This document shows, piece by piece, positions 48,918 to 63,129 of a stretch of DNA of 64,000 nucleotides (within the stretch, counting starts at the first letter, position 1; each line of letters opens with the position of its first letter). This stretch comes from Streptomyces sp. NBC_01294 (GTDB taxonomy: Bacteria; Actinomycetota; Actinomycetes; Streptomycetales; Streptomycetaceae), in NCBI RefSeq assembly GCF_035917235.1, contig NZ_CP108423.1, positions 8,027,501 through 8,091,500 on the forward strand, written 5' to 3'. Made by a program: the position numbers and the translations under genes. Below the pieces are notes generated by a model. It did no database searches. It saw only the letters and a program-made list of their open reading frames with translations, and was not told the origin of the DNA.

Positions 48918-49002
48918 CTTCCAGGGCCGCTGTTCGCCCTGAAGACCAAGAACAGACCTGCTCGCTCCCCTGACACAGAGACACAGGAGCACAGAGACAC
49001 AG

Positions 49003-49611
49003 ATGAACGTGAACGCTTCCCTGCCCACACCGCGCATGGCGTCCCTCGGGCATTCCCGGAAGGCCCGCGTCGCGGCCGCCCTCCTCTCCTTCGCCGCGCT
49101 CACCGCATGCGGCGAGCAGCAGCAGCCCGCCAAGAGCGCCGCCGCGGACACCGCGGACACCGCGCCCACGACGCGCTTCAGCGAGAACGGGGTCACCGTC
49201 ACGCTCTCGGTGTCCGACTGGCAGGCCTCGAAGGGCACCCTGACCGCGGTCTTCACCCCTGAGGAGAAGGGTTTCCACCTCTACAGCACCGATCTGCCGC
49301 CCACCGGAATCGAGGGCGTGGGCAGACCGACCACCGTGGACGTCACCGGAATCCTCAAGGCGGACGGGAAACTGACGGCCGCCGCAGGCGTACGGACGAT
49401 CAGCGTGCCCGGCGTCGACGCCCCGGTCCCCGTCTATCCGGACGGCCCGGTCACCGCCACCCTGCCCATACACGCCGACGGCAACGGGGACGCGACGGTG
49501 CTGCTCGGCTACGCGAGCTGCAGCACGGAGCAGGGCTGCACGATTCCGGTCACGGACCGCCCCGTACACCTGCGCGTCACCGACGACGGCCCGACCTTCG
49601 GCGCCTCCTAG
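49003..49611 (+). CDS. lipoprotein with DsbD alpha-like domain
   Basis: The 202-aa protein has a lipobox-type signal (AALLSFAALTACGEQ) and an immunoglobulin-like beta domain (GFHLYSTDLPPTGIEGVGRPT, VTATLPIHAD) ending with two cysteines in GYASCSTEQGCTIPVTDRPV. Cys-x(5)-Cys followed by P-x-T/D is how the DsbD N-terminal (alpha) domain places its redox pair. With the neighbouring CcdA and thioredoxin-like proteins it completes a DsbD split into separate chains. ATG 49003 follows the CcdA gene by 85 bp. Confidence 0.7.
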   Translation: MNVNASLPTPRMASLGHSRKARVAAALLSFAALTACGEQQQPAKSAAADTADTAPTTRFSENGVTVTLSVSDWQASKGTLTAVFTPEEKGFHLYSTDLPPTGIEGVGRPTTVDVTGILKADGKLTAAAGVRTISVPGVDAPVPVYPDGPVTATLPIHADGNGDATVLLGYASCSTEQGCTIPVTDRPVHLRVTDDGPTFGAS

Positions 49612-49724
49612 CATCGGCCGCCCCCGCGTCGGCCCCCGCGCCCGCCCCCCGCCCCCGTCCCTCGCGAGCCGGTCCTCCGTCACCTGTCCACGACCTCCCC
49701 GGACTGAGCCCCTAAGGTGTCCCC

Positions 49725-50466
49725 ATGCCGAGCGTCCTGGTCGTGGAAGACGACCCCAGCATCCGCCAGTCACTCATCGAGGTCCTGGCGGAGCACGGGT
49801 ATGCCGTACGCAGCGTGGGCGACGGGTTCGGCGCCCTGCGCGAGGTCACCCAGATGCCCGTCGACGCGGTGGTCCTCGACCTGGGGCTGCCTCGATCTGG
49901 ACGGAGGCGACGCACTGCGCATGATCCGGGGCATCTCCTCCGTTCCCGTCCTGGTGGCCCACCGCCCGCGACGACGAGACGGAAATCATCAAGCTCCTCA
50001 ACGCCGCGCCGACGACTACCTGGTCAAGCCCTTCTCCGGGGGACAGCTCATCGCACGTCTCTCCGCCGTCCTGCGGCGCACCAGCCACGCGCCCGCCGCC
50101 CACACCGCGCATGGCGCCCACACCGGGCAGGGCTCGGGGCCGGCGCCGGCGGCCGAGCCGCTGCGCCCCGCCACCGTGGGCGAGCTGGCGGTGGACCCGG
50201 GTGCGCGCACCGCGCACCTGGCCGGCCGTGAGCTCCACCTCACCCGCCGGGAGTTCGACCTCCTGGCCTTCCTCGCCCACCACACCGGCCAGGTCGTCTC
50301 CAAACGCCGGCTGCTGACCGAGGTCTGGCGCGAGCCGTACGTGGACGACCAGACCGTCGACGTCCACCTGTCGTCCCTGCGCCGCAAGCTCGGCGAACGC
50401 GCGGCGGCCCCGCGCTACCTGCTGACCGTCCGCGGTGTCGGCATCAAACTGGTGGCGCCGCGTTGA
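49725..50466 (+). CDS. OmpR-family response regulator (frameshifted)
   Basis: The receiver domain reads LVVEDDPSIRQSLIEVLAEHGY and VVLDLGLP (phospho-Asp), then in other frames DLDGGDALRMIR, TARDDETEIIKLLNAG and DDYLVKPFSGGQLIARL. The winged helix is intact (LTRREFDLLAFLAHHTGQVVSKRRLL ending LLTVRGVGIKLVAPR). Shifts lie near 49895, 49962 and 50008. TAAGGT lies 6 bases before ATG 49725, close enough for a leaderless mRNA. It is the candidate regulator of the shared promoters upstream. Confidence 0.8.
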
Positions 50467-51871
50467 GACGTTCACTGGCCGGAGTGGCGCTCGCCGTCAC
50501 GTCCATGGTCGCCCTCTCCTTCCTCATACCCCTGGCCGCGCTGGTGATGTCGCTGGTCAAGGAGCAGAGCGTCACCGCGGCCGAGCAGCGCGCCGCAGCC
50601 CTGGCGCCCGTCCTCACGCTGACCACGGACCCGTCCGCCCTCCGGGAATCCGCCGCCAGCCTGGACGCGACCGAGCACCTGGTCGTCCACCTGCCGGACG
50701 CCCAGCCCCTCGGCAACTCCCAGGCCCCCAAGGCGCTGCTCGAACGGGCACAGCAGGGGCGCGAGTCCATCTCCCGGCAGATTCCCAGCGGCTGGATCTG
50801 CCTGCAGCCGGTGGTGCTCCCCGGAGACCGGGTCGCCGTCATCGAGAACTTCGTCCCCGAGGAGGAGCTGACCCGCGGGGTCAAGGCCTCCTGGGCGGTC
50901 ATGGTCCTCCTCGCCGTGGGTCTGATCGGCGGCTCGGTGCTGGTGGCCGACCGCCTCGGCTCGAAGGTCGTCAGGTCCTCGCAGCGGCTCGCGCAGGCTT
51001 CGCGCACGCTGGGGGAGGGCAACCTGGACACCCGAGTGGACCCCATGGGCCCCAAGGAACTGCGCGACGCGGGCGTCGCCTTCAACGCCATGGCCCACCG
51101 CATGACCGAGCTGCTCGCCATCGAACGCGAACTGGTCGCCGACCTGTCCCACCGGCTGCGCACCCCGCTGACCGCCCTGCACCTGGCGTCGGAGCGGATG
51201 GCCGGCACACCGGAGTCGGCCAGGGTCGAGGCGGCGGTGCACGCGCTGGAGACGGAACTCCAGGCCATCATCACCGCGGCACGGACCCCGCTCGCGGTCA
51301 GCCCCATGGGCCACGGCATGCGCAGCGGGGACACGACGACCACGGTCCAGCCCGCGCCCGGCGCGGGACCGTCCGGGCCCCGCTGCGAGGCCGCGGAGGT
51401 CGTCCGGCGCCGGACCTCCTTCTGGGCGGTCCTGGCCGAGCAGCAGGACCGGCCCTGTTCCCTGGACGTCACCCAGGAGCCCACGGCCGTCAGCCTCTCC
51501 GACGACGACATCGCCGCCGTCGTGGACGCGCTCATCGGCAACGTCTTCCGCCACACCGCGCCCGGAACCCCGTTCGGCGTCCGTGTCGTCCGCACCGCCC
51601 ATGCCGTGGAGCTGATCGTGGAGGACGCGGGCCGGGCATCCCCGAACCGGAGCGGGCCCTCTCCCGCGGGAGCAGCACCGGTTCCTCGGGGCTCGGCCTC
51701 GACATCGCCCGACGGGCCGCGGCCGTCACGGGCGGCTCGATGCATATCGCACAGGCCCCCCGGGGAGGCGCCCACATCACCGTGGCCTTCGCGCTCGCCC
51801 CATCGCCGCTGTCCGAGCGCAGACCACGCATGTCCCGACGGCGGCCCACGTGGCCGCGTCGGCGGTCGTGA
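50463..51871 (+). CDS. sensor histidine kinase (frameshifted)
   Basis: TTG 50463 overlaps the response regulator stop (TTGA). Two TM helices (VALAVTSMVALSFLIPLAALVM and AVMVLLAVGLIGGSVLVA) flank a periplasmic sensor of about 110 residues. HAMP (RVDPMGPKELRDAGVAFNAMAHRM), H-box (LVADLSHRLRTPLTALHLASE) and N-box (VVDALIGNVFRHT) follow. After a shift near 51635 come GIPEPERALSRG and GSSGLGLDIARRAA (G2). The total is about 468 residues. It pairs with the upstream OmpR protein. Confidence 0.85.
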
Positions 51872-52022
51872 CGGCGGTCGTGACGGGGCTCCCTCCGCGG
51901 GCTCCTTCCCGCTGCCGGCCGCCGGCGTTCATCCGGACGGCCGAGCAGCGCAAGCCACCGGCGCCCCGCCGGGTCAGGCTGTGGGCAAGGATCGTCACCA
52001 CCGCACAGACGAGGACCGCGCC

Positions 52023-52382
52023 ATGCCCCACAGCCGACGCATCCGACGCATCAGCATCATCGCGGGGGCCGCAGCAGTGCTGCTGAGCGCCACCGCCTGC
52101 TCGGGCCTGGGCCGGACCACCGTCGGCATGCTCAGCTTCCGCGGCCACGACTCGCCGATCGAGCTGAGCTACTCCAACACCCTGGTCAAGGGATGCCACA
52201 AGATCGCCATCCCGAAGGGAGCCACCCACGTCGAGAACAACACCCTCGTCGACATCGTCCTGTACCGGACGGAGAACTGCCGCGAGACCGAGCAGGCCGA
52301 CAGCATCTACGTGGCCACGACCCTCTCGGACGTAACGGCCCCCGCCAGCCGGCCCTGGCGCAGTTTCACCGTCGTCCACTGA
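52023..52382 (+). CDS. small lipoprotein
   Basis: The 119-aa protein has a basic start and lipobox LSATAC (ISIIAGAAAVLLSATACSG), then a beta-rich domain (IELSYSNTLVKGCHKIAIPKGATHVENNTL) with two further Cys that could pair. It follows the kinase on the same strand and may be part of the same regulon. No family is known to me. Confidence 0.6.
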   Translation: MPHSRRIRRISIIAGAAAVLLSATACSGLGRTTVGMLSFRGHDSPIELSYSNTLVKGCHKIAIPKGATHVENNTLVDIVLYRTENCRETEQADSIYVATTLSDVTAPASRPWRSFTVVH

Positions 52383-52628
52383 CTCCAGGCCGACCGTCCC
52401 GTGACGAAGGGCGCGGCGGCCCTTGTACCGCTCAGGGTGAAGCGGCGGCGTCGAGTCCCGGGCCCGGGTGGCCCTCACCGGGGCGGACCCCTCGCGGGGA
52501 GCCTTGGCACGCCCCGCCCGCTTCGATTTTCCTCCCGGCGGGCTCAGGGCGCGCGCTGGTCGAGAGGCCCCGTCGGACGCCGAGGCGTGCGACCCCGTCC
52601 GGCCGGGTGACGGGGAGATGATGTCGGC
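52383..52628. other. intergenic region
   Basis: I see no gene and no clear hairpin in this 246-bp gap. A GGGGAGATG lies upstream of ATG 52629 and is the probable ribosome-binding site of that gene. Confidence 0.4.
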
Positions 52629-52907
52629 ATGACAGATGAATCCAAGCGTCCTCTCAGCGAGCTCCACCCGGGCGAACCCGTCCGAGCGACCATCACGAGC
52701 CACCAGCCATGGGGCATCACGGCGGAACTCCGAGACTACGAGCCGGTCGGCGCATCACTCGACACCATCCGCCGCAGCGGCGAGCCGGGCGTCAGACGAC
52801 TGGCGCAGGACCTCCCGCCGGTGGGAACCACCGTCGAACTGGTCGTCGGCAGAGTGAGCTCCTGGGACTACGCACCGTGGATATGGGTGGACCTCACGAG
52901 CAACTGA
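52629..52907 (+). CDS. small S1/OB-like protein
   Basis: The 92-aa protein reads LHPGEPVRATITSHQPWGITAEL and LPPVGTTVELVVGRVSSWDYAPWIWVDL. The G-x-V...G-x-x-A/V rhythm resembles an S1/OB nucleic-acid-binding fold with the middle replaced. The function is unknown. ATG 52629 has GGGGAGATGATG shortly upstream. Confidence 0.5.
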   Translation: MTDESKRPLSELHPGEPVRATITSHQPWGITAELRDYEPVGASLDTIRRSGEPGVRRLAQDLPPVGTTVELVVGRVSSWDYAPWIWVDLTSN

Positions 52908-52975
52908 CAGCCCTGAGCGGGCCGTTGTCGTCTCCCGCTCGCCGCGGGCCGGAACCCCCGCGTCCGGGGTGCGGG

Positions 52976-53623
52976 TCAGGGCTTGGTCGACGTGAGGACA
53001 CCGATCTTGTCGAGGCGGTGTTCGGGATTGTTCTGCGCGTCCCGCCAGAAGTTGCCCGCCGCGTCGTCCTCGGGCGTCAGGCACGTGGTCACGGTGATCA
53101 TCGCGCGGGTCGGGGTCGCGCCGGGCGAGCCGGGGACCGCCGCGCGCTGCGCGTCGATGGAGGCCTGAGACCGGAAGGACGTCGTCCGGGTCGTGGTGAT
53201 CACGTACTGGTACGTCACGCCGCCGGCCGTCACGAACACGGACGCACCCGTCGGCAGCGACGGCAGGTTGCCCAGCGGCCCACCGGCCGAGATGCGGTGC
53301 CCGGTCACGATGTAGTTGCCCACGTCACCGGGTCCGACGCCGCCGCCGGGCCCGTACGGGCTGGCGGCAACGCCCCGGTCCTGGATACGGGTGCCCGGTG
53401 CGTCGTCGGGACTGCCCGGGTACGGGATCACGGGCAGCCCCGACACGCCGATTGCGGGAATCGACAACGTCGCCTGCTGGATGCCGGCGGCTGCCTGGAC
53501 GCGGGCCGCGGGCGCGGCGGACGTAGCCGCGGGCGCGCCGGGAGCGGTCAGCAGGACGGCGAGCGCGGCGCAGGCGAGCGCCATCGGCGCGGTACGGGAG
53601 GCGGTGCGCGGGTGCTGGGTCAT
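52976..53623 (-). CDS. class E/F-like sortase
   Basis: The 215-aa protein has a signal peptide (PMALACAALAVLLTAPGAPAA) and a sortase beta-barrel: ATLSIPAIGVSGLPV, GNYIVTGHR (catalytic His), TRAMITVTTCLT (catalytic Cys in a TTC variant of TLTTC) and HRLDKIGVL (probable catalytic Arg). Sortases attach LPxTG/LAxTG proteins to peptidoglycan. I see no substrate with a matching sorting signal nearby. Confidence 0.85.
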   Translation of the reverse strand: MTQHPRTASRTAPMALACAALAVLLTAPGAPAATSAAPAARVQAAAGIQQATLSIPAIGVSGLPVIPYPGSPDDAPGTRIQDRGVAASPYGPGGGVGPGDVGNYIVTGHRISAGGPLGNLPSLPTGASVFVTAGGVTYQYVITTTRTTSFRSQASIDAQRAAVPGSPGATPTRAMITVTTCLTPEDDAAGNFWRDAQNNPEHRLDKIGVLTSTKP

Positions 53624-53763
53624 GGCGGAGTCCGTGGGTCGGCCGGGGCCGCGCGGGGTCAGGCCGGCCCTGTTGCCTCTTCCAGCGTCGCACAGGGGAG
53701 CGCATGCGGCAGGGGCACGCAGTCGGTGGCAGCCGAGGGTTCAGGGCAGGGCCAGGATCAGGG

Positions 53764-54108
53764 TCAGGGCTGCGCCAGGTACCCGAAGAGGGTGTCGCGG
53801 CTGTGCCGGAGGGTGCTGATGCGCTCGTCCATGGCCGTCAACTCCCGGTCGAGGAGGGACCGGAGCTCCGCGCACCAGTGGAACCGCGGCTCCTCGCCCC
53901 GGATGCAGGGCAGCACCGAACGGATCACCTCGGTGGTCAGCCCCGCGTCCAGCAGCGCCCGCACCTGCCGCACGGTGACCACCGAGTCCTCGGCGTAGTC
54001 GCGGTACCCGTTCGGGCCGCGCCTCGCGTCGAGCAGTCCCTGCGCCTCGTAGTACCGCAGCAGCCGGGAGCTGACCCCGGTGCGCCGGGACAATTCGCCG
54101 ATCAGCAT
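53764..54108 (-). CDS. MerR-family transcriptional regulator
   Basis: The 114-aa regulator has LIGELSRRTGVSSRLLRYYEAQGLLDARRGPNGYRDYAEDSVVTVRQVRALLDAGLTTEVIRSVLPC, a complete MerR HTH, and a short coiled dimerisation helix. One Cys pair (LPCIRGEEPRFHWC) is present but does not match known metal loops. ATG 54108 is confirmed by the motif start. It is divergent from an FMN reductase gene whose promoter has MerR-type geometry. Confidence 0.9.
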   Translation of the reverse strand: MLIGELSRRTGVSSRLLRYYEAQGLLDARRGPNGYRDYAEDSVVTVRQVRALLDAGLTTEVIRSVLPCIRGEEPRFHWCAELRSLLDRELTAMDERISTLRHSRDTLFGYLAQP

Positions 54109-54129
54109 GTGACCTGCTCCCATCCGGAC

Positions 54130-54161
54130 TTGACCTTCACATTGATGTGAAGCCCTAACGT
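54130..54161 (+). promoter_or_regulatory. MerR-type long-spacer promoter and operator
   Basis: TTGACC (54130-54135) and TAACGT (54156-54161) are separated by 20 bp, longer than the usual 17. The spacer is filled by a perfect 18-bp palindrome, CTTCACATTGATGTGAAG (54135-54152). This is the layout on which MerR proteins act by untwisting DNA. It reads rightward to the reductase gene. Confidence 0.8.
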
Positions 54162-54254
54162 CGCCGCGTGAGCAGGCATTCCGCGGCCGGGTCCGTCCAC
54201 GCCGTCGCTCGCTCTGCCTCGCACCCCTACTCGATTTCGCGATGCTGGAGTGAC

Positions 54255-54884
54255 ATGTCTTCCTCTGATGTTCAGGACCACGGCTCGGCGGCGACTCCCC
54301 GTTCGTTCCTGTTCGTTCTCGGCAGTTCCCGCCCGGACGGCAACACCGAGATGCTCGCGCGGGCGGCCGCCGAACAGTTGCCCACCGGCGTCCCGCAGCG
54401 CTGGGTGGACCTGACCCGCCTGCCGCTGCCCGATTTCCAGGACGGGCGGCACGGAGACCGAGACCTGGCCGGTCGGGGAGAACGAGGAACTGCTCCGGCA
54501 GGCCACCCTGGAGGCGACCGACGTCGTCATCGTCTCGCCCTTGTACTGGTACACCCTGTCCGCGCACGCCAAGCGCTACCTCGACTACTGGTCGGGCTGG
54601 CTGACGGTGCCCGGTTCGGACTTCAAGGAGCGGATGGCGGGCCGGACCCTGTGGGGCGTGACCGTCATGTCGGACCACGACGAGGTCGTCGCCGACGGGC
54701 TGGTGACCAGCCTCAACCACTCGGCGGCCTACCTGCGGATGCGCTTCGGCGGGGTGCTGTTCGGCAACGGCTCGCGGCCCGGCCAGGTGCGGGGCGACGA
54801 GCGGCGGCCGTCCGCGCCAAGACCTTCTTCCAGCGGGAGGCCCCGCTCGCTCGGTTCCCCTACGAGGAGACGGACCGGCCGTAG
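54255..54884 (+). CDS. NADPH-dependent FMN reductase / flavodoxin-like (frameshifted)
   Basis: ATG 54255 has CTGGAG upstream. FLFVLGSSRPDGNTEMLARAAAEQL is the flavin phosphate loop, followed by LPLPDFQDGRH, then in another frame LLRQATLEATDVVIVSPLYWYTLSAHAKRYLDYW and RMAGRTLWGVTVM, then AKTFFQREAPLARFPYEE. Shifts lie near 54450 and 54800. It reduces quinones or flavins with NADPH. Control by the divergent MerR suggests induction by electrophiles or redox-active compounds. Confidence 0.8.
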   Translation: MSSSDVQDHGSAATPRSFLFVLGSSRPDGNTEMLARAAAEQLPTGVPQRWVDLTRLPLPDFQDGRHGDRDLAGRGERGTAPAGHPGGDRRRHRLALVLVHPVRARQALPRLLVGLADGARFGLQGADGGPDPVGRDRHVGPRRGRRRRAGDQPQPLGGLPADALRRGAVRQRLAARPGAGRRAAAVRAKTFFQREAPLARFPYEETDRP

Positions 54885-54951
54885 CCGACCGCACGGGCCG
54901 CACCGGAAGCGACGCCGCCCGGGCGCGGGGGGACCGGGCGGCGCCGCTTCC

Positions 54952-57900
54952 CTACATGCCCCTCTTCAGGGCCGAGACGGTCACGTGGTCGATCCGCATC
55001 GGATGGCCCGGTTCGGTGGCGGGGCCCGCGGTCGCGCCGTCGGCGAGCGGCAGCTTCCCGCCGACGGCCACGTTGAGGATCAGGAACAGCCCGTGGTCCA
55101 CCGCCCGGTTCCACGTCCCGGCGTCCATCCGGGCGGCCGCGACCCGGTGGTACACGCGGCCGTCCAGGTACCAGCGCACCTCCTCCGCACCCGGTGCGAG
55201 GTCGACCTCGACGGCGTACGAGTGGAAGGCCGTACGGCAGCCGGGGCACGGCTGCGGACCTGAGGTCAGGCCCACGGGCTCCTGGCACGGACCGCCTTCG
55301 AGGACCCCGCAGTGCAGGGGCCGAAGACGGTGTCCCGCCCGTTCACGGACTCCATGACGTCGATCTCCCCGATGCCCGGCCATCCCGTGCACCCGTCGCG
55401 CAACGGGGTCCCCAGGGTCCAGAACGCCGGCCAGTAGCCCGCCGCCTTCGCCCCGGTCACGTCGGGCAGGGCGATCGAGGCCTCGATCCGCAGGATGCCC
55501 CCGGGCGGCGGCGCGAAGTCGGAGCGCCGTGTCTCGATCCTCCCCGAACTCCACGCGCCTTCCTTGCGGGTGGGGACGATCTCCAGCGCGCCGTTCCCGT
55601 CGAGGCGGACGTTGTCGGTCGAGTCCGTCATGGTCTCGATCTCGCCGGTGCCCCACTGCGGCGCGGGGCAGCCCGGGTGCACGTACCGAGGTCGTGGAGC
55701 AGTTCGCGGCGGACGGCGGGCTGCCCGCCGGGCCGTCGAAGTCGTCGCGCAGCAGCTGAGTCCACCCGCCCGTACCGGGCACCGCAGCGGCTGCGGCCGG
55801 AGCGGGGCAGCGCCCCGGCCTCCGTGAGCAGCCGCTCCAGCCGGTTGGTCAGCACGACGGCCGCCACGTTGGTCAGGTGGGCGTCGTCCCGGTAGAGCAG
55901 GATCCGGTCGAGCACGGCCGGGCAGGTCGGTCGTCGCCGGGCACAGCACCGGGTTCACGCCGACGCTCCGTACGCCGGGCAGCTCGCCGGACGCGATCCG
56001 CCGTGCCAGCGCATCGGGCGGCAGGGCGTCCTCGCGGCCGAACGCGCAGTCGGCGGGGGAGTCCGGGCTGCCGGAGACGCACGCGGGGACGTCCGTACCG
56101 GGTACGGGGGTGTCCTCGACATAGACGATCGGCACGCCCAGTGCCCGCAGCTGCCGCAGCGTCTTCTCCCAGCCCTCGGCCAGGAGCGCCGCGTCGGCGG
56201 TGTAGCGGTTGAGCGAGGCGATGACGATGAGACGGGGCTTCGGCTGCTGCCTCAGCCGCTCCAGGGTGTTCGCCCGCCAGGCGTCGCACTCCCGGTAGGC
56301 GCGGCCCAGCTGGGGGCTGTTCACCGTCAGCTCCGGCAGCGGGCAGCCCTGCTTCACGAACTCCTGCAACGCCCAGCCCCGTCCGGCGGCCAGCGCCAGC
56401 ATCGGGGAGAACCACTGCCCGGCGTGCGAGTCGCCGAGCAGCACGATCCGGTCCGGGCTGTCCACCGCGCCGAACAGGCAGTCCGGGCTGTGCGTCTCGG
56501 CCGGGGCGACCTCGCATGCCCCGTCCGGCGGGAAGTCCCCGCGGGCCTGGGCGGGGGTCGGCACCACCGGGCCGTCCACGAGCGGCGTGCCGGGGGTCCG
56601 GGCGAGCAGGGTGGGGCCGGAGGCGGCGCCCGGGGGCAGTCCCTTCGGGTCGACCGGGGCGGCCGGGCCCAGCAGGTTCAGGGTCGTCGTGCCCACCACC
56701 AGGGCGAGGACGACCGGGAGCACGACGGCCGTCACGCCCACGGACAGTCCGCGGCGGGGGAGTTCGGATACCGTGCGGCTGCGCCGCAGCGGTCGCTCGA
56801 CCCAGCGCAGGGTGGCGAGGGCGGGCAGCACGGCCGCCAGCGTCAGCGCGGTCTTCGCGGGCCAGCCGAGCGCGCCGAGGCGGGCCTCGGCGAGGACGAG
56901 CACCGGCCAGTGCCACAGGTACAGGTTGTAGGAGAGCCGTCCGACCGCCCGGGGTGCCCGACCCGCGAGCAGCCGCCCGACTTCCCAGGCCCCCGGGGCG
57001 TTCCGCTCGCCCCGGCCGGGTATCCCGGCGAGGATCACGGCGGCGGCGGCCAGCGTCGGCACGAGCGCCGCGCAGCCGGGGTACGGGGTCGCGGCGTCGT
57101 ACGCCACCACGCACCAGCCGATCGCCGCGGCCCCGGCCCAGCCGCACAGCAGCCGCAGCGGTCGCGGCCCGCGCATCAGGTGCCAGGGCAGCAGGGCGAG
57201 CAGCGCGCCGACGCCGAACTGCCAGACGCGCGAGGGTGTCCCGAGGTACGCGAGCGATGCGGAGTGCCGCGTCCAGTACAGGCCAGGCCGAACGAGGCGA
57301 GCGTCAGCGGCGCGGCGACCAGCACCACGACGCAGCGCACGGCGCGGCCCCGGCGGACCGCCCGGGCCGCGCAGGCGCGAGCACCGCCAGCAGCGGCGCC
57401 CAGAACAGGTAGAACTGCTCCTCGACGGCGAGGGACCAGAAGTGCAGCAGCGGGCTCTGGTCGTGCCCGGCGGCGAGGTAGTCGGTCCGCTGCGCCACGA
57501 ACCGCCAGTTGGCGAGGGACAGGGCTGCCGCGACGACGTCGTACTCCACGTCGGTGCGGCGCAGCGGTACGGTCAGCCAGGCCCCGGCCACCGCCACCGC
57601 GCCGAGCACCACGGCGGCCGAGGGGCAGCAGCCGCCGGGCACGCCGGGAGAAGAAGTCCCCGAGCCGGATCCGACCGGTGGTGATCGCCTCGCGGACCAG
57701 CAGACCGGTGATCAGGTAGCCCGAGATGACGAAGAAGACATCCACGCCGACGAAACCGCCGACCGTCCCGGGAATCCCGGCGTGGAAGGCGAGGACCGCG
57801 AGGACGGCGACCGCGCGCAGCCCCTCGATGTCGGGCCGGAAGGCGGACCGGTGCGGGCTGGGCCCGGACTCGCTGCCGGAGCGGGACCCGGACGGCAGCC

Positions 57901-57967
57901 GTCCGGCGGACTGCGGGGCGGCGCGCCCACGAAGGCGGCGCCGGCCGGGTGTCACGAGGAAGGACAT
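54952..57967 (-). CDS. acyltransferase-3 / SGNH / GH16 fusion protein (frameshifted)
   Basis: ATG 57967 opens an OafA-like membrane acyltransferase (FRPDIEGLRAVAVLAVLAFHAG, VDVFFVISGYLITGLL, HFWSLAVEEQFYLFWAP). A periplasmic SGNH domain follows (VLLGDSHAGQWF, DDAHLTNVAA). Removing one C at about 55815 then joins EAGALP to APAAAAVPGTGGWTQLLRDDFDG, the start of a GH16 domain with catalytic GEIDVMESVNG and the end FLILNVAVGG. About 1000 residues in all. Other shifts lie near 57640, 57375, 57280, 55922, 55700 and 55290. It acylates and cleaves an exopolysaccharide, probably that of the upstream GT2. It could also be two genes. Confidence 0.65.
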
Positions 57968-57981
57968 GGTGGCGGGGCCTT

Positions 57982-59687
57982 TCAACTCAGCCAGGGAAGC
58001 ATCGGGTCGACCCACCCCGATGCCAGCAGGCCGGTGAGCAGGAGGACCGCGGAGGCGGCGACGGTCTCGGGCCAGCGGCGGGGCAGCATCCCGGTACGGG
58101 AGCGCAGGGAGGCCCGTACGCGGGCAGGCAGCGACCGGCGCTCCGCCCGCCCGGACACCGTCCGCGGCCGGAGCTCGGCCATCAGGTCCCGGATCAGCGG
58201 GCCGTTGATCTGGCACTGCACCAGGAGGTAGAGGAGCAGGCCCCAGTTAGGCTCCCAGCCGTTGCGGGCCACGGCCAGGGCGAGGCCCGCCGCGGCCGCG
58301 CCGTTGGAGACGACGAGCCAGACGAGCGAGACGGCCACCACCCGGCGGGACATCCCGCCCGCTGCCCCCGCGCGCCGCGCGCCGGTGGGCACCCAGGCGG
58401 CGCTGCGCCCCGCAGGGTGTGCAGGAACGCGGTCGCGGCGGCCACGCTCGTCAGCACGTTCGCCCGGATCACCTCGACCCGCCAGCGGGTCCGGCTCGAT
58501 CCGCGGCAGCAGCACGTGCCAGAGCCACAGTGGGGCGAGCAGCGGCAGCACGTGCCAGGGCCCGGATGTGGTCCGGGTACCGAGAACATCATCACCAGCG
58601 GGGGCAGCGGCGCGGCGAAGGTGTTCACGGCCGTGGTCAGGTACCGGACGACGCCCTCGTAGAAGCACAGCCGCATCCGCCAGGCGCACGCATCCGTCCC
58701 AGCACGGGGGGCGCCGAGGAGGTGCAGGTTGCCCATCGCCCACCGGTACTGCTGGTTGACGAAGGAGGTGAGCCGGTCGGGCGAGGTGCCCTTGGCGACC
58801 AGTACCGGGACGTACTGGGTGCGGAAGCCCTGCTCGTGGAGGGCGAGGCCGGTGTACAGGTCCTCGCTGTGGTCGAGCCGGGCGAAGCCGCCGGCCAGGT
58901 CGATCGCGCTGCGCCGGTAGACGGCGTTGCTGCCGCAGCAGATGGCGGCGTCGCTCGCGTCCCGGGACGGCTGGATCCACCGGAAGAACCACTCCTGGGC
59001 GGAGCCGGCGGCCCGCTGGATCCAGTCCATGGTCGCGTCGGTGTCGAAGCACTGCGGGCTCTGCACGATGCCGACGGCGGGGTCGGCCAGGTACGGCACG
59101 AGGTGGTGCAGGAAGTCCGGCCGGGGCGCGAAGTCCGCGTCGAGGATCGCGATGAACTCCGCGCTGCTGAGGGTGAGCGCGTGGTTGAGGTTCCCGGCCT
59201 TCTTCAGGTGTCCCCGGTCGGGGCGTACGACGTACGCGTAGCCGTACGAGGCGCCCAGCGCGGCGACTTCGGGCCGGTCGGCGTCGTCCAGGATCCAGAC
59301 GGTCAGCGCACCGGGCCAGTCGACGGCCGCGACCGCGCGGTAGGCGTTGGCCAGGACGGGGAGCGGTTCGCCGCAGGTCGGCAGGTATAAGTCGACGCCC
59401 GGCGGTGCGGCCGGCTGCCAGGCGTGGACGAGTATCTCGTGCGACCGCCGGGTGAGCCGGCGCGGGCGCAGGCTGTTGACGGAGGAGAGCGCGAGGGCCA
59501 CGACGTTGAGCCCGAGGACGGCGAGGAAGGCCCACAGGGCCGGTGTCCGCAGGGCGAAGGTGAACATGGTCGCCGCCGTGAACACGAAGGCGAGCGAGCT
59601 GGTGACCAGGACCCAGCGGCGCTGGGGTCCGAAGTACCAGTAGAGCTCTTCGTCGGAAGGTGGTTGCGGAAGATGATGAAAGGTCAT
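57982..59687 (-). CDS. cellulose-synthase-like GT2 glycosyltransferase (frameshifted)
   Basis: This is a membrane processive glycosyltransferase of about 568 residues. Two N-terminal TM helices precede the GT-A domain, with WILDDADRP (first Asp), AILDADFAPRPD (DxD), HSEDLYTGLALHEQG (catalytic base region, S-E-D in place of T-E-D) and QQYRWAMGN (QxxRW). C-terminal TM helices follow after shifts near 58575, 58495 and 58420 (LLPLLAPLWLWHVLLP, VVAVSLVWLVVSNGAAAAGLALA). It would extend a beta-glucan-type chain from UDP-sugar and export it. The downstream fusion gene starts 14 bp later. No PilZ domain, GlxA or GH6 neighbour is seen. Confidence 0.85.
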
Positions 59688-59802
59688 AAAGCCCCCCACG
59701 GCTGTGCATGTACCTGTTTCAGGTGACCCAGCCTAGTGTTAAAGGTATAGACCACTGTCACGCGGGGATGAACAGTCCTGAAACTCAAGGAGCTTGGCCG
59801 AC

Positions 59803-59846
59803 ATGCGCCGTCGTCCCCGGTGCGCGGACCGGAGACGACGGCGCAT
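59803..59846. terminator. long hairpin, possible terminator
   Basis: The 19-base arms ATGCGCCGTCGTCCCCGGT and ACCGGAGACGACGGCGCAT match at 18 of 19 positions around a 6-base loop (GCGCGG). There is no U tract. It may be a terminator that belonged to the degraded gene or IS, or a mobile palindromic element. Confidence 0.5.
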
Positions 59847-59887
59847 CACGGGTGACGGATCGCGCGACCGCCGAGGCCGTTTCCTTC

Positions 59888-59984
59888 GGATCGCCTCGCT
59901 GACCAGATGAAGATGGCGGCGATGTGGAGTCCGGTCCGGTAGCAGCGGCTCGATACGGGCCCACTGGGCGTCAGTCAACGACAC
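59888..59984 (-). mobile_element. IS5-family transposase N-terminal fragment
   Basis: The frame from GTG 59984 reads SLTDAQWARIEPLLPDRTPHRRH, the conserved start of IS5-type transposases. It departs from the family after about 25 residues. Only the extreme N-terminus survives. It is a different part of the protein from the remnant at 30692-30984. Confidence 0.7.
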
Positions 59985-60249
59985 GCGTCAACCCACGATC
60001 GGATGATCCGGAAGAGACGGCCCAAGCTCCGGTGCGGGCGACCTCGGTCACCGGCTTCCGGTAGTTGGGGCGGTACTGCGCCCAGTCCTGTTCCCCGTGG
60101 TCGTCGAGTCCCTCCCGGCCTCCGTGTGGGCCGGGCGGAAAGCTCGAAGTCCTCAGAGCCACGCCGTTCACCGGTTGAGCGGTCCGGCGCGGGTCTAGCG
60201 TGCACGGTGACCACTCGCCCATGATGGCGAGCCTTCTCAGGGGGTTCCT

Positions 60250-60711
60250 TTGCATCGACTGATCAACGCGGCCGCTCGTGTGACCACGGTCGCGGGCATT
60301 CTGGCCACCACCGTTCTGACGGGGACGAACGCGCAGGCGGCCAGCGGGGGCGGCTGCGCCGGGTACTCCTCCGGGGTGATCCGGGAGAGGTTCATCGAGA
60401 TGAGGGTGTGCATCAGCGCCCCGAGCCACGGCGTCGGGCGCCCCGACGGATTCCTCACCCTGCGCTCCGGCCACCCGGCGTGCAAGGTCTTCATCCGCGC
60501 TGTCCGCACCGGCGGGTCGAGGGTGGTCTCGAACAAGGTCCACACGTGCCCCTCCGGTGCCTTCCGGACGAAGCGGTTCGCGGCGCCCGACTTCAACGAC
60601 AGCCACCACGAGGAAGGCGAGGGGTACGCCACGTACATGCAGGTGCAGTGGAGTGACGGGTCGTGGGCGCCTCCGTACCCCTACCGCAGCCCCTGGCTGA
60701 AGCTTCCCTAG
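60250..60711 (+). CDS. small secreted Cys-containing protein
   Basis: The 153-aa protein starts at TTG 60250 (CAGGGGG upstream) with a signal peptide (ARVTTVAGILATTVLTGTNAQA) and a beta-rich domain with four Cys (GGGCAGYS, RVCISA, HPACKV, HTCPSG), probably two disulfides. No family is recognised. It resembles many small secreted Streptomyces proteins of unknown role. A strong terminator follows. Confidence 0.6.
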   Translation: MHRLINAAARVTTVAGILATTVLTGTNAQAASGGGCAGYSSGVIRERFIEMRVCISAPSHGVGRPDGFLTLRSGHPACKVFIRAVRTGGSRVVSNKVHTCPSGAFRTKRFAAPDFNDSHHEEGEGYATYMQVQWSDGSWAPPYPYRSPWLKLP

Positions 60712-60721
60712 TCCGGCATCT

Positions 60722-60758
60722 GGGGATTGCGGCTCCGCGAGGCGGAGCCACAATCCCC
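60722..60758 (+). terminator. hairpin terminator
   Basis: The 17-base arms GGGGATTGCGGCTCCGC and GCGGAGCCACAATCCCC match at 16 of 17 positions around a GAG loop, 10 bases after the stop at 60711. Confidence 0.8.
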
Positions 60759-60956
60759 TGGCCCGGGCAGGACCAAGCAGCCTGCCGCAAGTAGGCAGGT
60801 CGGGGAGACCTGGGTGCGAGGTGGGGAGATTCAAGGCTCTGACCGTGCTTCTGTGACGACTACGCCAGAGGACATGGATTGTCTCCCCCCATGAGAGGGA
60901 GACGCCTTCCACGCTCGGGGGATCCGCGGGCCCACCGCGTGCGGTTGTCTGAGGGC

Positions 60957-62297
60957 ATGAAGAACACGACAGGACGCCTGCTCACTCTGTTCCTGATGAC
61001 CGTGCTGACGGCCACCGGGCTGTCCGTACCGGCTCTGGCGCAGCCGCCGGACGGCGACATCCGGGCCCGGATCGAGGCCATCCCCGGAATGCGCGTGCTC
61101 GGCGAACGGCCTGCCACCCCAGGCCAGGTCGTCCTCGACCTCACCTACCGGCAGCCCACCGACCATCGGCACGCCGACCAAGGTTCCTTCGACCAGAGGC
61201 TGACTCTGGTACACAAGTCGACCCAGCGCCCCATGGTGCTCTACTCCAGCGGCTACGACCTCGGATCGTCGCCGAACCGGATGACCGAGCCGGCCCAGTT
61301 GCTGGACGCCAACCAGATCACCACGGAGCAACGCTTCTTCGGGACGTCCCGGCCTGAAGACCCGGACTGGTCCAAGCTCACCATCTGGCAGGCAGCAAGT
61401 GACCATCATCGCCTCATCACCGCACTCAAGACGATGTATCACGGCGCGTGGATCTCCACCGGCGGCAGCAAAGGCGGGATGACGGCCGTCTATCACCGCC
61501 GCTTCTATCCGGATGACGTGGCCGGTACGGTCGCCTACTCCGCCCCCAACAACACGGACGACCGGGACGACACCGCGTACGACGCCCGCCTCGAACAGGT
61601 CGGCACCACCGAGTGCCGCGCCGCAATCAAGTCCGCTCAGCGTGATGCGCTGATACGGCGCGAGGCGATGACGGAACGCTACGCCCGGTGGGCCGAAGGC
61701 GAGAAGAAGACCTTCGGGACCATCGGCAGCGTGGACCGTGCCTTCGAACTCGCCGTGGTGCGCCTGCCGATGATGTTCTGGATGCATCAGTCCACGGACG
61801 GTTGCGCATCCATACCCACCTCCACAGCGACCGATGATGCCCTCTACCTATGGGTCGCCAAGGTGACCCAGCTCCCCGTCTACACCGACCAGACCGTCGA
61901 ATCCTTCACGCCGTACTTCTACCAACTGGGCACCCAGCTCGGTTACCCGCAGTTCGCCACCCCCTACCTGGACGGACTGCTGCGCTACCCGGGCATCCAG
62001 GAGATCCGTACTTATGTGCCACGGGACATCCCCCTGCGTTTCCAGCCCGCTGCAATGGCGGACATCGACCGCTGGGTACGCCGCCACGGCAGCTCACTCA
62101 TGTTCGTCAACGGCGAGAACGACATCGCAGTCGCAGAACACTTCCGCCCAGGCAACGGCACCTACGACTCCTACCTCTTCAACGTGCCCGACGCCAACCA
62201 CCACATCTCCATCACCGGCCTGCGTCCGAACGACGCCGAACAAGCCACCGCGGCACTGCGCCGGTGGGCCGGCCAGACGGAGACAGCGGCCCGTTGA
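60957..62297 (+). CDS. secreted S37 (PS-10) prolyl tri/tetrapeptidyl aminopeptidase
   Basis: The 446-aa secreted serine peptidase has a signal peptide (RLLTLFLMTVLTATGLSVPALA) and an alpha/beta-hydrolase domain with nucleophile ISTGGSKGGMTAVYHRRFYPDDV, acid NGENDIAVAEHF and His in DANHHISITGL. This pattern and length fit the S37/PS-10 family known from Streptomyces mobaraensis and S. lividans. It removes tri- or tetrapeptides from secreted proteins during mycelial growth. GAGGG precedes ATG 60957. The gene is intact. Confidence 0.85.
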   Translation: MKNTTGRLLTLFLMTVLTATGLSVPALAQPPDGDIRARIEAIPGMRVLGERPATPGQVVLDLTYRQPTDHRHADQGSFDQRLTLVHKSTQRPMVLYSSGYDLGSSPNRMTEPAQLLDANQITTEQRFFGTSRPEDPDWSKLTIWQAASDHHRLITALKTMYHGAWISTGGSKGGMTAVYHRRFYPDDVAGTVAYSAPNNTDDRDDTAYDARLEQVGTTECRAAIKSAQRDALIRREAMTERYARWAEGEKKTFGTIGSVDRAFELAVVRLPMMFWMHQSTDGCASIPTSTATDDALYLWVAKVTQLPVYTDQTVESFTPYFYQLGTQLGYPQFATPYLDGLLRYPGIQEIRTYVPRDIPLRFQPAAMADIDRWVRRHGSSLMFVNGENDIAVAEHFRPGNGTYDSYLFNVPDANHHISITGLRPNDAEQATAALRRWAGQTETAAR

Positions 62298-62457
62298 AGT
62301 TGTGCGCCACCAGTTCCGATCGTGGCCGCGGCGAACTCCGTCCGGGCGGGGCCCATCCCCTGTCCGCGCGCGTCAACCGGGGCCCGCCGGCGCCCTCTTG
62401 TCCGGCGTGGGAGCCTGCGCGGTGGGATGGCTGCTTCTGGCTGCCCTGGCCGTGTGT

Positions 62458-63129
62458 TCAGGCGCCCAGGTGTGCCCCGTCACCGGTGCCGAGGAGGGGG
62501 ACGGCGAGACGGCGTGCGACGGCGTTGGGCAGCGACCACAGCTCGGTACGCTGCTTCCGGTCCCGCGCACCCTGGCGGTCGGCGCGGCGGATCCCGGGCA
62601 CGGCGAGGGCCAGAGCGGTCAGGGACGAGGCCAACCCGGCGCCGAGGAGTACTCCGGCGAGTACGGCCCCGCCCGCCAGGGCGAACGGAAGCGCGAACCC
62701 GAGGCAGAGCGTGCCGAGGCCGCCGAGGACGGCCAGCATCCACCACAGCGGGGTGAGCGGGTGCTCGTCGCTCAGGTGGTCGACCAGCTGCCGGTCGGTG
62801 GGCCGCCGCCGGCGGTGTTCGCCGGCGGCGGCGAACAGCTCGGCACGTCCGCGCAGCACCCAGACGGCGCGCACTCCCACCCATGCGACGGGGAGCACGA
62901 ACAGCGTCACCAGCACCAGGCCCGCCTGGACGCCCCGTGGCACCGGCACCCAGCCGGAGGCGTCGGCCACCACGGATGCCACGGCGGCTCCCGCGAGTAC
63001 GGCACCCGCCGTGCTCGCGGCCACAAACCATCGCCGGGCCCGGCGCACCCGAGCGCTGAGGAGGGAACTCGACCGCGTCCAATGTTTTCTCCGTCCGATG
63101 ACCGCAGGTACTCTACGCAGCCTGCCGAT
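62458..63129 (-). CDS. multi-TM membrane protein
   Basis: The frame encodes four hydrophobic segments (FVAASTAGAVLAGAAVASVVA, QAGLVLVTLFVLPVAWVGVRAV, LWWMLAVLGGLGTLCLGFALPFALAGGAVLAG, SLTALALAVPG) with basic loops (EHRRRRPTDRQLVDHL). It is probably about 210 residues. The start is unresolved: the frame is open upstream but coding character begins near 63129, overlapping the leader of the divergent gene. No family is recognised. Confidence 0.5.
   Translation of the reverse strand: MGRLRRVPAVIGRRKHWTRSSSLLSARVRRARRWFVAASTAGAVLAGAAVASVVADASGWVPVPRGVQAGLVLVTLFVLPVAWVGVRAVWVLRGRAELFAAAGEHRRRRPTDRQLVDHLSDEHPLTPLWWMLAVLGGLGTLCLGFALPFALAGGAVLAGVLLGAGLASSLTALALAVPGIRRADRQGARDRKQRTELWSLPNAVARRLAVPLLGTGDGAHLGA

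What the first reader, a model, noticed from the sequence alone, without database searches (positions are those of the whole stretch)
54952..59687. Beta-glucan synthase beside an acyltransferase-SGNH-GH16 fusion
A cellulose-synthase-like GT2 is followed 14 bp later by a gene that, if one C is removed at about 55815, becomes a single ~1000-residue protein: AT3 membrane acyltransferase, SGNH, an Ala/Pro linker, then GH16. The GH16 active site is GEIDVME (the ExDxxE laminarinase type), pointing to a beta-1,3-glucan rather than cellulose. A polymer synthase with an acylation-plus-trimming enzyme on one chain differs from the known cslA-glxA-cslZ locus and could be an undescribed exopolysaccharide system.
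Basis: partly seen in the sequence, partly recalled or inferred. Interest (0 to 1): 0.75.

Follow-up and report, generated by a model that had tools for sequence, protein, structure and literature searches.

The report
GlcNAc-linked acyl-glucan synthase operon
A soil bacterium carries a conserved two-gene operon that probably builds a sugar polymer, decorates it with acyl groups and trims it with an enzyme fused to the decorating enzyme, apparently switched by the signal that also controls chitin use; this surface polymer seems undescribed.

Summary
A processive GT2 synthase gene (57982-59687, minus strand) is followed after 14 nt by an AT3-SGNH-GH16 gene (54952-57967). In this noisy assembly both are broken by several frame changes, not by one extra C. 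The intact ~1000-residue fusion is common in Streptomyces and Kitasatospora. Of 23 other Streptomyces genomes with the close GT2 (294 searched), 21 encode the fusion in one frame directly downstream. In some other actinobacteria the GH16 is a separate neighbouring gene, and all 8 examined carry a lipoprotein signal. So GH16 is kept at the membrane by fusion or by a lipid anchor. Its nearest solved relative is an endo-1,3-beta-glucanase. The GT2 has the D,D,DxD,ED,QxxRW signature but WVPTG in place of the FxVTxK gating loop, so it fits none of the BcsA, CrdS or BgsA clades. New here: a DasR-type (dre) palindrome precedes the operon in 42 of 42 examined loci of its own streptomycete lineage. In this genome the motif also precedes a nagB-like gene, a GH19 chitinase and an LPMO. 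It is absent from the 8 separate-GH16 loci. Most likely this is a GlcNAc-controlled machine for an acylated, length-controlled beta-glucan. The product is inferred.

The parts
57982..59687 (-). GT2 processive synthase gene (about 560 aa in intact relatives), frame-broken in this assembly
   Evidence: ORFs; Pfam GT2 families; the other terminal-repeat copy is 95% identical to P0122 over residues 1-398 and this copy 86% over 1-436; motifs
54952..57967 (-). AT3-SGNH-GH16 fusion gene (about 1000 aa in intact relatives), frame-broken in this assembly
56823..57832 (-). AT3 membrane acyltransferase domain (two pieces in different ORFs)
   Evidence: PF01757
55860..56516 (-). SGNH domain (Pfam match 55932-56516; the DDAHLTN block lies just beyond it in another frame)
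   Evidence: PF19040; frames (read on L005, identical here)
56424..56435 (-). SGNH nucleophile block GDSH
   Evidence: read from sequence; Ser and His invariant in 32 relatives
55770..55845 (-). approximate Ala/Pro-rich linker between SGNH and GH16
   Evidence: frames; alignment
54955..55770 (-). GH16 domain
   Evidence: nearest 3dgt endo-1,3-beta-glucanase
55350..55370 (-). GH16 active site GEIDVME (ExDxxE)
   Evidence: E, D, E invariant in 32 relatives
59741..59756 (-). dre-like palindrome AGTGGTCTATACCTTT, 54-69 nt before the GT2 start
   Evidence: dre consensus in PMC4398421

Best explanation
It is a synthase-dependent surface-polysaccharide operon. The GT2 polymerises a hexose, most likely glucose with at least some beta-1,3 bonds, and passes the chain through its own membrane channel. 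The AT3 domain carries an acyl group (most likely acetyl) across the membrane and the SGNH domain places it on the emerging chain. The GH16 domain, held at the same site by the fusion, cuts or re-joins unacylated beta-1,3-linked stretches and so sets chain length and release. Transcription is predicted to be repressed by DasR and released when GlcNAc-derived signals rise. Shown here: gene order, domain order, conservation of catalytic residues, membrane retention of GH16 by two alternative means (the lipid anchor by signal pattern only), and the conserved operator-like block. Inferred: substrate, linkage, acyl group, trimming and DasR binding.
Against: No product, acyl group or activity has been measured. 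The GT2 lacks FxVTxK. Nine of 33 GT2/AT3-SGNH loci have no GH16; of 6 of these whose downstream gene was tested, 2 carry a UDP-glucose dehydrogenase gene, so the GT2 family may not always make a glucan. No dre-like match of 12 or more was found in the 8 separate-GH16 loci (three of them streptomycetes: L063, L127, L128), in L164, or in L073, L074 and L082. Some shuffled upstreams reach 12 or 13, and in the window alone two pattern hits are not striking (13 of 100 shuffles reach 2). The second dre-like block of many Streptomyces is missing in the window. The AlphaFold model of the fusion is poor (mean pLDDT 54.2). The window copy may be non-functional.
Confidence: 0.55

Rival explanations
1. 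The GT2 makes a beta-1,4-glucan (cellulose-like) or another hexosan, and the GH16 domain acts mainly as a transglycosylase or editor that joins it to the cell wall or removes stray bonds.
For: Nearest solved GT2s are cellulose synthases. GH16 is a retaining, often transglycosylating family (recalled).
Against: The GT2 fails the NCBIfam BcsA cut-off (168 against 699.1 bits, on a frame-broken reading), lacks FxVTxK, and its GH16 is nearest an endo-1,3-beta-glucanase.
Confidence: 0.25
2. The GH16 works on outside material: a cell-bound glucanase used with the DasR-controlled chitinases against fungal walls, only riding on the AT3-SGNH protein.
For: The dre-like operator puts the operon with a chitinase, an LPMO and a nagB-like gene. 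Fungal walls hold chitin and beta-1,3-glucan (recalled).
Against: The operon begins with a synthase and an acyltransferase, and GH16 is tethered, not secreted, in both forms. The same genome has a separate GH16 with an ordinary signal (L003).
Confidence: 0.12
3. In this strain the operon is a decayed pseudogene; the frame changes are real.
For: Frame changes at the SGNH-GH16 junction are identical in both terminal-repeat copies.
Against: The two copies differ by dozens of single-base changes elsewhere in the compared 14 kb, which fits assembly noise. Close relatives are intact. The catalytic motifs are still readable in the window's ORFs.
Confidence: 0.2

Closest known systems
Streptomyces CslA-GlxA cellulose synthase (PMC11022532, abstract and section 5 seen)
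   Same: Membrane GT2 with the D, D, D, QxxRW motifs for a surface glucan in Streptomyces
   Different: No GlxA-type neighbour; GT2 lacks FxVTxK, which that paper calls putatively present in CslA together with PilZ elements; AT3-SGNH-GH16 partner instead
Bacterial cellulose, curdlan and mixed-linkage synthases BcsA, CrdS, BgsA (PMC6821405, passages seen)
   Same: GT2 signature, KAG and QxPQ motifs
   Different: WVPTG replaces FxVTxK; no PilZ among listed domains; different partners
AT3-SGNH O-acyltransferases such as OafB and OatA (PMC9558356, passages seen)
   Same: AT3 with C-terminal SGNH, conserved GDSH and DxxH
   Different: Additional C-terminal GH16; gene follows a synthase; GH16 occurs 0 times in that review's main text
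Actinobacterial endo-1,3-beta-glucanases of GH16 (3dgt)
   Same: ExDxxE site and whole-domain similarity
   Different: Fused to a membrane acyltransferase or with a lipoprotein signal, not freely secreted
DasR core regulon (PMC4398421, passages seen)
   Same: 16-bp dre-like palindrome upstream
   Different: Target is a polymer-building operon, not chitin or GlcNAc use; binding untested

Membership tests
BcsA cellulose synthase | D, D, DxD, ED, QxxRW signature | tested here: met
BcsA cellulose synthase | NCBIfam TIGR03030 cut-off | tested here: not met
   168 bits against 699.1, on the frame-broken 501-aa reading only
BcsA cellulose synthase | PilZ domain | tested here: not met
   No PilZ among the precomputed Pfam domains of the 120 homologues listed of 2500 (PilZ accession recalled)
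BcsA, CrdS and BgsA clades | FxVTxK gating loop, reported fully conserved in all three (PMC6821405) | tested here: not met
   W, V, P, T, G invariant in 28 aligned GT2; aligned to RsBcsA FAVTAK; the plasmid-borne references L138, L139 and E. coli BcsA L140 keep FxVTxK
cslA-glxA-cslZ locus | glxA-type gene beside the GT2 | tested here: not met
   PF09118 hits of the genome lie at 3.04, 0.48 and 7.75 Mb; this operon is at 8.08 Mb and 0.14 Mb
AT3-SGNH acyltransferase | PF01757 followed by PF19040 | tested here: met
AT3-SGNH acyltransferase | acyl transfer activity | not testable with these tools
   needs assay
GH16 laminarinase type | ExDxxE site and sequence match to beta-1,3-glucanases | tested here: met
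GH16 laminarinase type | match to the general Pfam GH16 model PF00722 | tested here: inconclusive
   Not reported for 4 intact fused relatives; above cut-off in separate-gene homologues L063, L065, L066, not reported for L062
GH16 laminarinase type | cuts beta-1,3-glucan | not testable with these tools
   needs assay
DasR regulon | dre element upstream | tested here: met
   13 of 16 in the window, 12 or more in 42 of 42 loci of its lineage; consensus from PMC4398421
DasR regulon | DasR binding and GlcNAc response | not testable with these tools
   needs EMSA or ChIP

The most novel reading that the evidence does not exclude
A third Streptomyces surface glycan, beside CslA-GlxA cellulose and MatAB PNAG: an acylated beta-1,3-containing glucan made by an undescribed GT2 clade with a different gating loop, cut to length by a GH16 that evolution keeps at the membrane by fusion in one lineage and by a lipid anchor in others, and switched on in the fused lineage by GlcNAc signals through DasR.
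Probability: 0.42. Interest if true: 0.78.

Novelty: new variant of a known kind. Interest (0 to 1): 0.62.

Why it matters
Synthase, acyl decorator and cutting enzyme in one operon would give a compact model for how a bacterium decides the length and acylation of a surface glucan. The GlcNAc link makes a testable bridge between cell-wall or chitin turnover and matrix production in antibiotic-producing bacteria. The GT2 clade with an altered gating loop would widen the set of known beta-glucan synthases.

Tried and rejected
Structure of the fusion: the model is too poor to search and was not fold-searched. RNA element in 54800-60300: three Rfam matches at E 0.17-0.86, all below gathering, taken as chance. 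GT2 paralogues at ~40% identity in other Streptomyces: 7 loci looked at. No AT3, SGNH or GH16 match was found in them. One or two neighbouring genes were tested in each of the 7: tRNA pseudouridine synthase (L123, L124), PMT-type transferases (L125, L129, L131), an alpha/beta hydrolase (L126), an AMP-binding enzyme (L130). A GH26-like reading was seen by eye in L123 only. Number of fusion events: the GT2 tree puts the two fused groups together (SH-aLRT 99), but the GH16 tree does not resolve it (support 62-63); left open. Name of a DasR model: one search used a guessed accession that proved to be another family; nothing taken from it, so whether this genome holds a dasR gene was not checked. 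Literature: (listings), and passages or sections of seven papers, gave no description of this operon or of an AT3-SGNH-GH16 protein; the library is open access only. A paper on chitin use by S. venezuelae has 0 occurrences of cellulose synthase, glycosyltransferase, acyltransferase or glucan.
Full report
What is there. The window is bases 8,027,501-8,091,500 of contig C1 (8,226,482 bp) of a two-contig genome; the best protein relatives are named Streptomyces. On the minus strand a GT2 gene (57982-59687) is followed after 14 nt by a gene for an AT3 membrane acyltransferase, an SGNH domain, a short linker and a GH16 domain (54952-57967). The same stretch occurs near the other end of the contig in inverted order (L005). 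The two copies align over 14,015 columns with 16 mismatches and 29 gap columns. The gaps are single bases, mostly C or G, and several neighbouring genes are frame-broken too, so the assembly is noisy. Indels in the GT2 and the AT3 part differ between the copies. Those at the SGNH-GH16 junction are shared, since no difference lies between 55390 and 57280. One removed C would not restore a single frame.

The fusion is genuine as a family. A search of about 5.8 billion proteins lists the best 120 of 1608 hits, 813-1092 aa long (one, P0001, is this genome's own reading). All 120 carry AT3 and SGNH domains and 107 of 120 also PF26113; no call here names PF26113, and the general GH16 model PF00722 was not reported for four of them. 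Alignments of 11 and of 32 show the same order with a short variable linker. GH16 catalytic E, D, E and SGNH Ser and His are invariant in the 32. The Asp of GDSH is Tyr in P0002 among the 11 shown.

Linkage to the GT2. In 33 of 80 (L043-L074 and L082) a GT2 of this family lies directly upstream on the same strand; in 47 of 80 none was found, some of these ending near a contig edge. All 24 loci with a GH16 match are among the 33. The 33 divide into 17 with GH16 in the same frame as AT3 and SGNH (one, L058, holds only the last third of GH16), 6 with GH16 as its own gene, 1 frame-broken (L070) and 9 without GH16. In an even draw of 295 Streptomyces genomes including this one, 23 others hold a close GT2 (at least 78% identical) and one, G300, holds two at about 50%. 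Of the 23, 21 have the fused gene next to it, 1 (L156) lacks GH16 and 1 (L163) ends at a contig edge. G300 has two copies of the operon with separate GH16 genes.

Two ways to keep GH16 at the membrane. In Solihabitans, Streptosporangium, three Nonomuraea, Streptomyces sp. NRRL B-3428 and the two G300 copies, the separate GH16 protein begins with a signal that matches the lipoprotein pattern (8 of 8). None of 11 secreted GH16 controls from related genomes does (0 of 11). In L065 the GH16 start overlaps the SGNH stop by 4 nt. In L066 the GH16 gene stands 1.4 kb further on. So the glucanase is tethered, by lipid or by fusion, next to an enzyme that acylates a polymer outside the membrane. The GT2 tree groups the Streptomycetaceae fusions with those of a second family (SH-aLRT 99); the GH16 tree cannot say whether this was one fusion event.

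A likely operator. The window and 25 Streptomyces upstream sequences are mostly unlike one another except for short blocks, a strong one being TGGTCTATACCT. It is a near-palindrome like the DasR element A(G/C)TGGTCTAGACCA(G/C)T (PMC4398421, passages). The best 16-letter match is 12 or more in 42 of 42 loci of the lineage with the close GT2 (20 named, 22 drawn; L163 not scanned). It is 13 or more in 2 of 3 loci of the second fused family and in 4 of the 7 other loci without GH16 (L067-L069, L072). It is under 12 in 8 of 8 separate-GH16 loci, three of which are streptomycetes, and in 7 of 7 paralogue loci. Shuffled upstreams, 30 per locus, reached at most 12 in the 42 and 13 elsewhere. In the window alone the pattern is not striking (13 of 100 shuffles had two hits or more); the argument rests on conservation. 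A second such block lies about 70 nt further up in many of the Streptomyces; the window lacks it. In this genome WGGTCTAKACCW occurs at 9 places against 0 for the reversed control. Two are the copies of this operon, one precedes a glucosamine-6-phosphate isomerase-family (nagB-like) gene with the same TATACC centre, a terminal-repeat pair precedes a GH19 chitinase, one precedes an LPMO and one a lactonase, one touches the start of a polysaccharide deacetylase gene, and one lies near an HAD hydrolase gene without preceding it. That is largely the company expected of DasR. Binding is untested, and I did not check for a dasR gene here.

Mechanism. The GT2 extrudes the chain, AT3 passes an acyl group across the membrane, SGNH places it, and tethered GH16 cuts or re-joins unprotected stretches. 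GlcNAc-derived signals would lift DasR repression. The first roles follow from the families (AT3-SGNH mechanism in PMC9558356, passages). The cutting role and the polymer are inference.

Relation to known systems. CslA-GlxA makes cellulose in vitro (PMC11022532, abstract), and its phylogeny section lists S. venezuelae and S. griseus CslA. The fusion also occurs in proteins named from both species (P0031, P0059), so this would be a second glucan system there. MatAB makes PNAG (PMC5972031, title and start of abstract in a search listing). None of the nine answered literature searches listed a paper that describes this operon by title or abstract start; the library is open access only.

The phrase '42 of 42 Streptomycetaceae loci' was too wide and now names the lineage; the Pfam GH16 misses, the window-only shuffle result and the unchecked dasR gene were added.

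Noticed in passing
window 48934-62933 and G000:C1:136000-150000: The stretch is part of a terminal inverted repeat; a GH16 gene pair at 0.458 and 7.767 Mb suggests the repeat is some 460 kb long or more.
   Followed up: partly
window 49717-52400 and 54255-54890: Response regulator, sensor kinase and a reductase-like gene (named by eye) are also frame-broken, with different breaks in the other copy: a sign of a noisy assembly.
   Followed up: partly
L073 10441-12243 and L074 9835-11379: Rhodococcus triatomae and Galbitalea carry GT2 and AT3-SGNH without GH16 but with a UDP-glucose dehydrogenase gene, hinting at a uronic-acid polymer.
   Followed up: partly
L123-L126, L129-L131: A paralogous GT2 clade (about 40% identical) in other Streptomyces lies near PMT-type transferases in three of seven loci, in L123 with a GH26-like ORF read by eye: perhaps another undescribed glycan locus.
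   Followed up: partly
L054, L057, L156: Streptomyces parvus, S. sindenensis and one drawn genome (probably the same record as L054) end the protein in the linker and have no GH16 nearby: apparent loss.
   Followed up: partly
L127 and L128 (G300): One Streptomyces has two copies of the operon, both with separate lipoprotein-type GH16.
   Followed up: partly
L173: A dre-like site lies at the end of a nitric oxide synthase gene, just before a lactonase gene.
   Followed up: no
window about 59880-60000: Upstream of the operon a short stretch reads like a transposase remnant (by eye), where relatives have a second dre-like block.
   Followed up: no
P0002: The closest intact relative has Tyr in place of Asp in the SGNH block GDSH.
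   Followed up: no
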